NCBI RefSeq assembly: GCF_009687865.1 | Contig: NZ_BLAE01000093.1 | Location: 1-38,727, forward strand | Direction of reading: 5' to 3' | DNA: 38,727 bases | Source: Acrocarpospora macrocephala | GTDB lineage: Bacteria > Actinomycetota > Actinomycetes > Streptosporangiales > Streptosporangiaceae | Part shown: one piece after another, positions 4,903-35,267 of the stretch | How the letters are laid out: each line of letters starts with the position of its first letter | How positions within the stretch are numbered: the stretch's first letter is position 1 | Program-made: the position numbers and the translations under genes | Notes under the pieces: model-generated | The model's input: only the letters and a program-made list of their open reading frames with translations | Told to the model about the DNA's origin: nothing | The model's database searches: none

Positions 4903-5807
4903 GCGTGATCGAGCTGAAGCAGGTCTCCCGCTGGTACGGCAACGTGGTGGCCGTCAACGACGTCACCATGACCATCGGCCCGGGCGTCACCGGCCTGCTC
5001 GGCCCCAACGGCGCCGGCAAGTCCACCCTGCTGCACCTGATGGCCGGCTTCCTGGCCACCTCCGGCGGCACCGCCACCCTGGACGGCAAGCAGATCTGGC
5101 GCAACCACGAGATCTACCGCACCATCGGCCTGGTCCCGGAACGGGAGGGCGTCTACGGCTTCCTCACCGGCTGGCAGTTCGTGCGCTCCGCCGCCCGCCT
5201 GCACGGCCTGCAGGACGACGCCGCCGAGCGCGCCCTCGAATTGGTCGAGATGACGGCCGCCAAGGACCGCAGGATCGAGACCTACTCCAAGGGCATGCGC
5301 CAGCGCGTCAAGGTCGCCGGGGCGCTCGTGCACGAGCCGCAGGTGCTGCTGCTGGACGAGCCGTTCAACGGCATGGACCCGCGCCAGCGACTGCACCTGA
5401 TGGACCTGGTCAGGAAGCTGGGCGCGGCCGGGCGGACGATCCTGTTCAGCTCGCACATCCTGGAGGAGGTGGAGCGGGTCGCCCAGCAGATCGAGGTGCT
5501 GGTCGCGGGCCGACACGCGGCCTCCGGCGACTACCGGGAGATCCGGCGGCGGATGACCGACCGCCCGCACCTGTTCCGGGTGCGCTCCAGCGACGACCGC
5601 CGCCTGGCCGCCGCCCTGATCGCCGACGCCTCCTCCGGCGGGGTGTCCCTCACCGCGCAGGGCCTGGAGGTCCGCACCGAGGACTTCCGCCGCTTCACCC
5701 GGCTGCTTCCCCGCCTGGCCCGCGACCTCAACGTGCACCTCTGGCAGGTGTCCCCCACAGACGAGGACCTGGAAAGCGTGTTCTCCTACCTGAGCGGGCG
5801 CTCATGA
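4899..5807 (+). CDS. ABC transporter ATP-binding protein
   Basis: 302 residues from the ATG at 4899, which overlaps the preceding stop (ATGA). It has Walker A GPNGAGKST near residue 36, signature YSKGMRQR, Walker B VLLLDEPFNGMDP and H-loop FSSHILEEVE. It resembles the first ATPase of the unit in signature variant and length but is clearly diverged, so it looks like an old paralogue and not a recent copy. The C-terminal 90 residues carry no recognisable motif. It overlaps the next permease by ATGA at 5804-5807 and so likely powers that permease, or forms a heterodimer with the first ATPase. Confidence 0.93.
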   Translation: MSVIELKQVSRWYGNVVAVNDVTMTIGPGVTGLLGPNGAGKSTLLHLMAGFLATSGGTATLDGKQIWRNHEIYRTIGLVPEREGVYGFLTGWQFVRSAARLHGLQDDAAERALELVEMTAAKDRRIETYSKGMRQRVKVAGALVHEPQVLLLDEPFNGMDPRQRLHLMDLVRKLGAAGRTILFSSHILEEVERVAQQIEVLVAGRHAASGDYREIRRRMTDRPHLFRVRSSDDRRLAAALIADASSGGVSLTAQGLEVRTEDFRRFTRLLPRLARDLNVHLWQVSPTDEDLESVFSYLSGRS

Positions 5808-6520
5808 ACTCCGTCGTGGCGTCCATCACCTACCGGGCGATGCTGGGCCGCAAGCGGATCTGGCTGCTGGCCGCGCTCCCGCTGGCCCTGATCGCCATCG
5901 CGGTGCTGCTCCGCCTGATCGGCGGCGGCGACGAGAACACCGCCGTCAGGCTGATGGAGAAGTTCGCGATCGGCACCATCCTGCCGCTGCTCGGCCTGAT
6001 CGCGGGCACCGGCGTGATCTCCCCCGAGATCGAGGACGGCACGATCATCCATCTGCTGTCCAAGCCAATCCCCCGGCCGTCGATCGCGCTCACCAAGTTC
6101 GCGGTGGCCGCCTCGCTGATCGTGGCCTTCTCGGCCGTGCCGACGTTCCTGGCGGCCTACCTGCTGATCGGCACGGAGGCGGGGGTGGCCGCCGGCTTCG
6201 CGTTCGGCGCGCTGTTCGCCGGGATCGCGTACGCGGCGGTGTTCCTGCTGGTGGGGGTGCTCACCAAGCACGCCGTCGTGGTGGGCGTCATCTACGCGCT
6301 GGTCTGGGAGGGCGCGATCGGCGGGTACGTCCCGGGGGCGCGCAAGCTGTCGATCCAGCAGTGGGGGCAGACCCTGGCCGACCAGGTGTCGTCCTCGCCG
6401 TTCCTCAAGGCGGACGTGGCGCTCAGCTTCGCCGCGCCGGCCATCGTGATCGTGACGGTGGTCGCGGTGCTGTGGGCCGGTCAGCGACTGCGTGGGCTGT
6501 CGCTGACCGGCGATGAATAA
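5804..6520 (+). CDS. ABC-2 type transporter permease
   Basis: 238 residues with six predicted membrane helices: IWLLAALPLALIAIAVLL, IGTILPLLGLIAGTGVI, AASLIVAFSAVPTFLAAYLL, AGIAYAAVFLLVGVLT, AVVVGVIYALVWEGAIGGYV and IVIVTVVAVLWAG. The segment IIHLLSKPIPRPSIALTKF between helices 2 and 3 is the cytoplasmic coupling region typical of ABC-2 permeases. It is the last gene of the four-gene overlapping unit. Its TAA stop ends 2 nt before the palindromic repeat at 6523-6613, which probably also serves as transcription end. Confidence 0.88.
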   Translation: MNSVVASITYRAMLGRKRIWLLAALPLALIAIAVLLRLIGGGDENTAVRLMEKFAIGTILPLLGLIAGTGVISPEIEDGTIIHLLSKPIPRPSIALTKFAVAASLIVAFSAVPTFLAAYLLIGTEAGVAAGFAFGALFAGIAYAAVFLLVGVLTKHAVVVGVIYALVWEGAIGGYVPGARKLSIQQWGQTLADQVSSSPFLKADVALSFAAPAIVIVTVVAVLWAGQRLRGLSLTGDE

Positions 6521-6522
6521 CT

Positions 6523-6613
6523 ATTAATTAGAAAGTCGTGATCTGGACAGCCGCGGCGGTGAGTCGCTGGTCGGCGGCTTTGCGGCTGTCTATGGGACGG
6601 GTTTCTGATTAAT
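6523..6613. repeat. Palindromic intergenic repeat, copy 1
   Basis: A 91-bp element with inverted termini ATTAATTAGAAA and TTTCTGATTAAT and an inner perfect 9-bp stem (GACAGCCGC with GCGGCTGTC). A second copy with about 87% identity by hand alignment lies at 33893-33984 in opposite orientation. The stem position next to ATTAAT is a T-G pair here and a G-C pair in the other copy, so both partners changed and pairing is kept. The copies differ by a 1-nt indel and share no reading frame, so the element is not coding. It lies between converging genes and contains the TAA stop of glmM. It could be a non-autonomous mobile element (MITE-like), a bidirectional terminator, or both. Confidence 0.8.
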
Positions 6614-7940
6614 CGCAGACCTGGCGGACGGTGTCCGCCAGGCGGGCGGCCACGGATTCGGCGTGGTCGTGCGACTGCGCCTCGACCATCACGCGGATCA
6701 TCGGCTCGGTGCCGCTAGGCCGGATCAGCACCCGGCCGGTGTCGCCGAGCTCCTCCTCCGCCAGCGTCACCGCGGCCAGCAGCTCCGGGTGCGCGGCTTT
6801 GTCCTTGCTCACGTCGCGGACGTTGACCAGCACCTGCGGGAGCTTGGTCATCACCGCGGCGAGCTCGGCCAAGCTGCGGCCTGAGCTCACCACCGCGGCC
6901 AGCAGGTGCAGCGAGGTGAGCAGCCCGTCCCCGGTGGTGGCGTGGTCGAGCATGATCACATGCCCGGACTGCTCACCGCCGAAGTTGTAGCCGCTCTCCT
7001 GCATCTTCTCCAGCACGTAACGGTCGCCGACGGCGGTCTCCACCACCGTCACGCCCGCCTCGCGCAGGGCCAGCTTGAAGCCGAGGTTGGACATCACCGT
7101 GGCGACCACCGTGTCCCGCTGGAGGCGGCCTTGCGCCCGCATCTCCAGCGCCAGGATCGCCATGATCTGGTCGCCGTCGATCTCCTCGCCGTCGCCGGTC
7201 ACCGCCAGGCAGCGGTCGGCGTCGCCGTCGTAGGCGATGCCCAGATCGGCCGACTTGGCCACGACCGCCTTCTTCAACGGATCGAGATGGGTCGAGCCCA
7301 CCCCGTCGTTGATGTTCAAGCCGTCTGGAGCGGTCCCAATGGTGTCCACCTGGGCGCCCGCCCGGCGCAGCGCCTCCGGGGCGACCATGTGGGCGGCGCC
7401 GTGCGCGCAGTCCACCACCACCCGCAGGCCGTCCAGCCGGTGCGGCAGCGAGGTGAGCAGGTGGGCGACGTAACGGTTGGCTTCCCCGTACGCCTCCCGG
7501 ACCCGGCCCACGGCGGAGCCGACCGGGCGTTCCCACGGCTCGCCGAGCCGGTCCTCGATCTCGTTCTCCACCGCGTCGGGCAGCTTGAAGCCACCCCGGG
7601 TGAGGAACTTGATCCCGTTGTCGGGCGCGGGATTGTGCGAGGCCGAGAGCATGACCCCGAGGTCGGCTCCCAGCGCTGGTGTCAGGTAGGCGACCGCCGG
7701 GGTGGGCAGCACACCGAGCCGGAGCACGTCCATGCCCGACGACGCGAGGCCGGCGACCACAGCGGCTTCCAGGAATTCTCCTGAAGCCCGCGGGTCCCGG
7801 CCTACGACGGCGAGCGGGCGGCTCCTCCCGGCGTCCCGGAGCACGTGCGCGGCCGCCACGGACAGGTCCATGGCGAGCTCGGCCGTGAGGTCGCGTCCCG
7901 CGACCCCACGTACCCCGTCGGTGCCGAAAAGGCGGCCCAA
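6609..7940 (-). CDS. glmM: Phosphoglucosamine mutase
   Basis: 443 residues, the normal family length. It converts glucosamine-6-phosphate to glucosamine-1-phosphate for UDP-GlcNAc and hence peptidoglycan synthesis. The N-terminus [11 protein letters not shown] is diagnostic. The phosphoserine loop SASHNP has its serine near residue 100, the metal loop is DGDADR (about 238), the sugar-binding loop GEQSGH, and the phosphate-binding loop RPSGTEP near the end. The start is TTG at 7940, the only candidate in register with the conserved N-terminus, and it sits one base after the rpsI stop. The tight rplM-rpsI-glmM order is usual in actinobacteria. The TAA stop lies inside the palindromic repeat at 6523-6613. 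Confidence 0.97.
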
Positions 7941-15357: not shown

Positions 15358-15442
15358 GGAATGCTCCTTGGAGATAACCCGCCCCGGCCGTATCAGGTAC
15401 CGGGGTCGGGCCGATCGGCGAGCCGATCGTTACGTGAAATTT

Positions 15443-33519: not shown

Positions 33520-33828
33520 TCAGAGCTTGATCGAGATGTCGACACCCGCGGGCAGGTCGAGCCGCATGAGCGAGTCGACGGTCTTGGGTGTCGGGTCGAT
33601 GATGTCAATCAGCCGCTTGTGCGTGCGCATCTCAAAGTGCTCGCGGCTGTCCTTGTACTTGTGCGGCGAACGGATGACGCAGTACACGTTCTTCTCGGTC
33701 GGCAGCGGCACCGGGCCCGCGACCTTCGCGCCGGTACGCGTCACCGTCTCGACGATCTTCTTGGCCGAGCTGTCGATGACCTCGTGGTCATACGCCTTGA
33801 GCCGGATGCGGATCTTCTGTCCCGCCAT
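33520..33828 (-). CDS. rpsJ: 30S ribosomal protein uS10
   Basis: 102 residues: [20 protein letters not shown], then [27 protein letters not shown] and [20 protein letters not shown]. It is a head protein and also the NusE antitermination partner of NusB. It is the first gene of the S10 block; ATG 33828 has GAAGGA and GAGG upstream. The preceding 245-nt spacer to tuf is filled with hairpins, so this block may be transcribed separately from the str operon. Confidence 0.98.
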
Positions 33829-33892: not shown

Positions 33893-33984
33893 GTTAATGA
33901 GAAACCCGTCCCATAGCCAGCCGCATGACCGCCGACCAGGCGATTCACTGCTGCGGCTGTCCAGTTCACGACTTTCTCATTAAT
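33893..33984. repeat. Palindromic intergenic repeat, copy 2
   Basis: A 92-bp element with termini GTTAATGAGAAA and TTTCTCATTAAT, in the opposite orientation to the copy at 6523-6613. By hand alignment 12 of 92 positions differ, including one single-base gap. The G-C pair beside the terminal ATTAAT replaces a T-G pair in copy 1. It begins about 65 bp upstream of rpsJ, between the tuf terminator hairpins and the start codon. The local A/T-rich ends contrast with the surrounding GC. Confidence 0.8.

Positions 33985-34073: not shown

Positions 34074-35267
<1,194 letters not shown>

What the first reader, a model, noticed from the sequence alone, without database searches (positions are those of the whole stretch)
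6523..6613. Two inverted copies of a ~91-bp palindromic element with a covarying terminal stem
The copy at 6523-6613 and the copy at 33893-33984 (opposite strand) agree at about 80 of 92 aligned positions, although they sit in unrelated spacers 27 kb apart. Both have ATTAAT-type ends followed by AGAAA and its complement, and an inner GACAGCCGC/GCGGCTGTC stem (one mismatch in copy 2). Beside the terminal ATTAAT the pair is T-G in copy 1 and G-C in copy 2, so both partners changed while pairing held. That points to selection on, or mobility through, the folded form. No reading frame is shared. A MITE- or REP-like element that lands in operon ends is a reasonable hypothesis.
Basis: partly seen in the sequence, partly recalled or inferred. 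Interest (0 to 1): 0.7.

Follow-up and report, generated by a model that had tools for sequence, protein, structure and literature searches.

The report
Hairpin-shaped jumping element in Acrocarpospora
The two copies belong to a family of about 90-base, hairpin-forming DNA elements that have spread by inserting at TA sites in the genomes of a genus of soil-type bacteria; it is a new family of a well-known kind of small mobile element, with unusually well documented matching changes in its two hairpin arms.

Summary
The two window copies are 88% identical and belong to a dispersed family present in all 5 held genomes of one genus, Acrocarpospora; 104 full-length copies were aligned. 16 of 19 further own-genome sites, and both window sites, are empty in the nearest relative. 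Three sites show a clean TA duplication; TA abuts the left end in 50 and the right end in 41 of 91 copies, background 0.9%. Covariation far exceeds controls: 103 double-changed cells against 32.3±3.5 shuffled and 5-8 slid. A diverged sister family lives in a second genus.

Best reading: a TA-targeting MITE family, like Correia, ERIC and RUP, moved in trans by a transposase that was looked for and not found. The step from covariation to selection on the fold is not secured: a strand control was negative, orientation to transcription shows no preference for the better-folding strand, and template switching between the arms could give the same double changes. New member of a known kind.

The parts
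6523..6613 (+). Copy 1 of the element; core TTAA...TTAA is 6524-6612, preceded by TA (6522-6523)
   Evidence: site empty in G001-G004
33893..33984 (-). Copy 2 of the element; core is 33894-33983
   Evidence: same site occupied in G002, empty in G001, G003, G004
6524..6534 (+). left terminal inverted repeat TTAATTAGAAA of copy 1
6602..6612 (-). right terminal inverted repeat of copy 1 (TTAATCAGAAA on the - strand)
33973..33983 (-). left terminal inverted repeat of copy 2 (TTAATGAGAAA on the - strand)
33894..33904 (+). right terminal inverted repeat of copy 2 (TTAATGAGAAA read on the + strand)
5804..6520 (+). ABC-2 type transporter membrane protein gene; its TAA stop is 6518-6520, two bases before copy 1
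6609..7940 (-). phosphoglucomutase/phosphomannomutase family gene; its TAA stop (6609-6611) lies inside the right end of copy 1
33520..33828 (-). rpsJ (ribosomal protein S10); its start lies 65 nt from copy 2
34074..35267 (-). tuf (elongation factor Tu)

Best explanation
A non-autonomous, TA-targeting miniature inverted-repeat transposable element (MITE) family of about 90 bp. Shown: dispersed copies, terminal inverted repeats TTAAYNAGAAA...TTTCTNRTTAA, sites that are empty in relatives, TA duplication at clean sites. Inferred: a DDE transposase with a TA target (IS630/Tc1 type or the IS427 group of IS5; these classes are recalled), supplied in trans, acts on the inverted ends and inserts the element into a TA, which is duplicated on repair. 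Most surviving copies lie in spacers. Because TTAA follows the duplicated TA, an insertion in the frame of a stop codon's TA reads TAT TAA, so the neighbouring protein gains one residue and stops. After insertion the two arms go on matching each other, probably through template switching between the arms, with selection on the fold as the alternative; this last step is inferred and open.
For: 46 matches in the own genome; present in 5 of 5 genus genomes; 119 distinct places in fetched loci and 104 full-length copies. Of 19 further own-genome copies 16 have a contiguous empty site in G004; both window copies are empty there too; some of the 19 sites also match contiguously in G001-G003 (by query coverage only). 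Clean TA-[element]-TA against a single TA at C20:25405, C21:152474 and C4:195446. TA outside the left end 50 of 91, right end 41 of 91, both 27, background 0.9%. TA-duplicating MITEs of this size are known in bacteria (PMC2229807, passages).
Against: No autonomous partner: 9 PF13358 and 19 PF13340 loci of the five draft genomes carry no matching ends. 27 of 91 copies have TA at neither end, and at most of the 16 empty sites the duplication is blurred by later change. Paralogues are at most 96.7% identical in G000 and 97.8% in G004, so there is no sign of a very recent burst. Copies at shared sites are often not each other's closest relatives.
Confidence: 0.87

Rival explanations
1. A structured RNA or regulatory element (leader, 3'UTR hairpin, terminator or RNase site) kept because its transcript is useful; mobility is incidental.
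For: Covariation far above controls. Inner-stem columns change about half as often as unpaired ones. All 16 departures from the G-G mismatch at positions 12-79 form a standard pair. G-U cells far outnumber A-C cells in both families (342 to 17; 78 to 7), and the consensus fold is much better on one strand (-24.1 against -1.0; -23.4 against -9.3).
Against: The C>U over G>A bias is similar in paired (1.9-fold) and unpaired (1.65-fold) columns, and four column pairs shared by most copies carry 260 of the 342 G-U cells. In tandem spacers the better-folding strand is sense in 20 and antisense in 34 copies (p 0.076). No Rfam match at the gathering threshold. Terminator-like sites: one in copy 1 (0.2 expected), none in copy 2.
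Confidence: 0.08
2. A REP-like palindrome moved by a RAYT (HUH, single-strand) transposase.
For: Palindromic, mostly intergenic, many copies; one strand keeps the better consensus fold in two families.
Against: TA duplication at clean sites does not fit HUH single-strand insertion (recalled); 90 bp with AGAAA-type terminal repeats is not REP anatomy (recalled). RAYT genes were not searched for.
Confidence: 0.04
3. For the covariation alone: selection on the folded form, rather than template switching, keeps the arms matched.
For: Same architecture in two genera with a flipped central pair (A-U in Acrocarpospora, U-A in the sister family) and G-U at corresponding pairs; at pair 5-94 C with A never occurs (0 of 98, Fisher p 0.0009; rows are related, so the p value is too small).
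Against: Double changes appear between copies at the same site, e.g. A-U to U-A between C40:35749 and G004:C22:41226; the control; the sister family alone does not show the C-A deficit (p 0.56). Template switching is described as a source of compensatory changes (PMC8794818, abstract).
Confidence: 0.4

Closest known systems
RUP (repeat unit of pneumococcus)
   Same: 107 bp, terminal inverted repeats, insertion at TA, many intergenic copies (PMC2229807, passages)
   Different: RUP has a proposed partner, IS630-Spn1, with similar ends; none was found here. No sequence comparison with RUP was made.
Correia / NEMIS elements of Neisseria
   Same: about 107 and 155 bp, terminal inverted repeats, TA at the ends, target duplication, stem-loop transcripts (PMC2229807, passages)
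   Different: Different host group; the present element is G+C-rich inside, whereas the review calls most such elements A+T-rich. No sequence comparison was made.
ERIC / RU-1
   Same: Short TA-duplicating repeat with terminal inverted repeats that forms a long stem (PMC2229807, passages)
   Different: 127 bp with 7 bp inverted repeats (PMC2759123 search listing; PMC2229807); enterobacterial. No sequence comparison was made.
Sister family in a second genus (g4) of the same family, found here
   Same: Same length, same ATGAGAAA/TTTCTCAT arms, same TGGACNGCCGC stem, G-U at corresponding pairs
   Different: Central stem pair T-A instead of A-T, outer ends C(C/T)(G/A) instead of TTA, different internal loop; TA duplication was not tested there

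Membership tests
MITE (broad class) | short, too small for a transposase, many dispersed copies | tested here: met
   about 90 bp; 46 matches in the own genome, 104 full-length copies in five genomes
MITE (broad class) | terminal inverted repeats | tested here: met
   TTAAYNAGAAA at both ends, 55 occurrences against 1 for the reversed control; alignment of 98 copies
MITE (broad class) | presence/absence at orthologous sites | tested here: met
   16 of 19 further sites and both window sites empty in G004
MITE (broad class) | target-site duplication | tested here: met
   TA duplicated at three clean sites; TA flank in 50 and 41 of 91; blurred or missing at many others
MITE (broad class) | autonomous relative with matching ends | tested here: not met
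   none among 9 PF13358 and 19 PF13340 loci in five draft genomes; other transposase families were not searched. Most described bacterial repeats lack a known partner too (PMC2229807, passages), so this is not taken as excluding membership
REP / RAYT system | RAYT transposase gene in carrier genomes | not tested
   no search was made
REP / RAYT system | no target duplication (recalled) | tested here: not met
   TA duplication at three sites
Known Rfam RNA family | match at the family's gathering score | tested here: not met
   the only match in the window is the L17 leader at 15379-15430
Intrinsic terminator | G+C-rich stem followed by a T run, beyond chance | tested here: inconclusive
   one site in copy 1 (0.2 expected), none in copy 2; only the two window copies were scanned

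The most novel reading that the evidence does not exclude
An old hairpin-element lineage of this bacterial family whose mobile or functional form is one folded strand: two families in two genera keep the fold of the same strand, with G-U pairs at corresponding places, while their sequences diverge and their orientation to transcription stays free. That would mean that mobilisation reads a folded single strand (or an RNA) and still ends in a TA duplication. A milder form: about 100 copies are a natural record of template switching writing 'compensatory' base pairs without selection.
Probability: 0.15. Interest if true: 0.65.

Novelty: new member of a known kind. Interest (0 to 1): 0.38.

Why it matters
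It adds a MITE family, and a sister family, in a group of actinobacteria for which searches of the held papers showed none (the 2024 review of prokaryotic MITEs, PMC10969869, searched by words only, does not contain actinobacteri, Streptomyces or Mycobacteri in its text). About 100 copies, with empty sites and shared sites in relatives, make it a test bed for whether base-pair covariation needs selection or can come from template switching; that bears on how structured RNAs are claimed from covariation. Copy 2 lies just upstream of the S10 ribosomal gene, so an effect on a core operon could be tested.

Tried and rejected
Autonomous partner. PF13358 (IS630 type) gave 1 locus in G000 and 8 in three of four relatives; PF13340 (DUF4096, IS5 type) gave 19 loci in five genomes. 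None carries TTAAYNAGAAA-type ends in the fetched flanks. The one pair of such ends 400-3000 bases apart in the held loci (L082) belongs to two copies of the element. Solitary end matches in the own genome were fetched: decayed copies or related palindromes. The genomes are drafts, so a repeated insertion sequence may be missing.

Stop-codon targeting. In 39 of 91 copies a neighbour's stop codon lies in the terminal 12 nt. A null drawn from the TAs of the same spacers expects 13.1 sites in stop codons and 11 are seen (46 sites tested; 27 without TA and 18 judged to lie inside a reading frame were left out). Rejected as a target preference. The ORF finder is my own and rough.

Strand-specific selection. 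The G-U excess looked decisive until the unpaired-column control showed a similar mutation bias. Kept only as the novel case.

Shared sites. One search pairs 12 own-genome sites with a copy at the same place in a relative, one of them in opposite orientation (C47:43238 and G004:C18:43917). 12 pairings were listed for element comparison and 11 ran (C85/C19 fell below the length cut); two further sites (C14/C28, C43/G003:C19) were not compared because copies are truncated. Ranks of the shared-site partner among all copies: 2, 1, 18, 10, 1, 76, 6, 47, 1, 76, 75. So conversion, re-insertion or fast decay cannot be excluded, and I do not call every pair orthologous.

Rows dropped: 6 of 104 full-length rows before the covariation count; 13 of 104 before the non-redundant count of 91. 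Counts per genome are lower bounds because the search scored at most 40 candidates per genome, 3 in the family search and 14-16. One of the 119 places (G003:C100:5581, 24.8 bits) is a different, related palindrome, and five are units of one tandem array. The partial blastn match in G052 (39 bases) scored 9.5 bits with the profile and was dropped. Plasmids and phages: no match at E 1e-5. An earlier count said 117 copies; the table there sums to 116.

Full report
What is there. Two copies of a palindromic element of about 90 bp lie at 6523-6613 (+) and 33893-33984 (-). They are 88% identical, fold beyond all 200 shuffles on both strands and match no Rfam family at the gathering threshold. Copy 1 lies between the 3' ends of an ABC-2 transporter gene and a phosphoglucomutase/phosphomannomutase family gene, whose stop codon (6609-6611) is inside the element. 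Copy 2 lies between tuf and rpsJ.

Family. The window is contig 93 of a 12.1 Mb draft genome. Copy 1 gives 46 matches there; 40 of 103 candidates were scored. All 5 held genomes of the genus carry the element. Profile searching of the fetched loci gave 119 distinct places (G000 44, of which five are units of one tandem array; G004 40; G001 23; G002 7; G003 5). With three later additions 104 copies are full-length. A scan of genome contigs for one exact 25-base pattern hit 25 stretches, 19 in Acrocarpospora pleiomorpha and 6 in A. catenulata; contig lengths identify G004 and G001 with these. By blastn 6 of 297 genomes of the family match, the sixth (G052) over 39 bases only. A covariance model matches 9 of 297: the five Acrocarpospora genomes and four of a second genus, g4. 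With one of those four as query, 18 of 54 g4 genomes carry a diverged sister family, 16 matches in the richest (16 candidates scored). Thirty of its copies align to the same architecture. That genus is not named by any search.

Mobility. Joined flanks of 19 further own-genome copies were searched in four relatives. In G004, the nearest by flank identity, 16 are contiguous, that is empty; 2 are split by other DNA (C3:199463, where G004 holds a remnant of the same element beside another palindrome, and C95:679); C40:25332 gave no match. Copy 1 is absent from G001-G004. Copy 2 is present at the same site in G002 and absent from G001, G003 and G004. Three sites show TA-[element]-TA against a single TA in the empty site: C20:25405, C21:152474, C4:195446. 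At most of the others one TA is altered or the spacer has diverged. Among 91 non-redundant copies TA abuts the left end in 50, the right in 41, both in 27, neither in 27; background TA is 0.9%. Nearest paralogues reach 96.7% identity in G000 and 97.8% in G004: lineage-specific insertions, but no very recent burst.

Anatomy. Outer stem TTAAYNAGAAA..CGT with ACG..TTTCTNRTTAA, an internal loop, inner stem TGGACAGCCGC with GCGGCTGTCTA, and a variable tip. On 98 copies (97 distinct) 93.8% of cells pair; 16 of 26 pairs show a change on both sides; 103 cells are double-changed against 32.3±3.5 in shuffles and 5-8 in slid controls.

What the covariation means. Against selection as the only cause: (a) the C>U over G>A bias is 1.9-fold in inner paired and 1.65-fold in unpaired columns, so the G-U excess of fresh changes is not special to pairs, and 260 of 342 G-U cells come from four column pairs; (b) in tandem spacers the better-folding strand is sense in 20 and antisense in 34 copies (p 0.076); (c) double changes appear between copies at one site, most clearly A-U to U-A at pair 7-101 between C40:35749 and G004:C22:41226. 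These two share a T before CAGCC seen in 4 of 98 rows, and U-A at that pair occurs in no other row of G000 or G004; overall, however, they are not closest relatives (rank 18). Template switching between hairpin arms is described as a source of such changes (PMC8794818: abstract and the first part of the introduction). For selection: inner-stem columns change about half as often as unpaired ones; all 16 departures at the 12-79 mismatch give standard pairs; C with A is absent at pair 5-94 (0 of 98, p 0.0009 without correction for relatedness; the sister family alone gives p 0.56); the sister family keeps the architecture with a flipped central pair and G-U at corresponding places. I leave the cause open, leaning to template switching for the terminal stem.

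Insertion context. By a simple ORF finder 26 of 91 copies lie between convergent, 8 between divergent and 54 between tandem genes; 3 are undecided (convergent against divergent p 0.003). In 39 of 91 a neighbour's stop codon lies in the terminal 12 nt of the element: TA followed by TTAA reads TAT TAA. This is not a preference for stop codons: 11 seen, 13.1 expected from the TAs of the same spacers (46 sites).

How it most likely works. Shown: multi-copy, inverted ends, empty sites, TA duplication. Inferred: a transposase acting in trans at the inverted ends, with a TA target. None was found among 9 IS630-type and 19 DUF4096 loci of the five drafts; other transposase families were not searched. 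Intact IS630-type elements of the genus have CTAGTG ends, not TTAA.

Known relatives. Anatomy and target agree with what PMC2229807 (passages) reports for Correia, ERIC and RUP. It works like them; descent from any of them was not tested. Membership in the broad class MITE is met on four tested features and unmet on the fifth (autonomous partner).

Novelty. Searches of the held papers: Acrocarpospora with MITE gave 1 paper, a taxonomy paper by title, not read; miniature inverted-repeat with Nonomuraea 0; with Streptosporangi 0; MITE with Streptomyces, transposase, intergenic and stem-loop 1, by title unrelated, not read. The library lacks most subscription papers. Verdict: a new family of a known kind.

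Noticed in passing
window 15379-15430 (-): Match to the Rfam L17-Actino-Proteobacteria ribosomal protein leader, 58 bits.
   Followed up: no
L032 1705-1962 (G000:C25:147204-147461): The inner part of one copy of the element has expanded into 4.4 tandem units of 59 bp.
   Followed up: partly
L205 222-334 (G004:C44): A different 113-bp palindrome with TTAA ends (TTAACCCCGTTTTCCGCA...TGCGGAAACAGGATTAA) lies beside a remnant of the element; possibly a second MITE family.
   Followed up: partly
L217 1921-2019 (G000:C121): A 99-bp palindrome with the same TAATGAGAAA...TTTCTCATTA arms but an unrelated middle.
   Followed up: partly
L212 2004-2095 and L048 266-356: Two further related palindromes (TTAACGAGAAAAGCGTGAAGTGGATCGCC...), one in G000 and one in G003, that match each other.
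   Followed up: partly
window 33893-33984: Copy 2 is identical over 90 of 90 bases in G002 at the same site, although the tuf-side flank is 91.7% identical to G002 and 100% to G004, where the site is empty: recombination, loss or re-insertion.
   Followed up: partly
G000:C47:43238 and G004:C18:43917: Same site in two genomes, element in opposite orientation: independent insertion or inversion in place.
   Followed up: partly
L137 around 2520 (G002, site of copy 1): The empty site of copy 1 in G002 carries a short direct repeat (GCGAATAACTAACG-like) in about three copies.
   Followed up: no
L222 1369-2507 (G004:C22): An IS630-type element with perfect 22-bp inverted ends TAGTGTGCCGCGCCAGAAATTC.
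   Followed up: no
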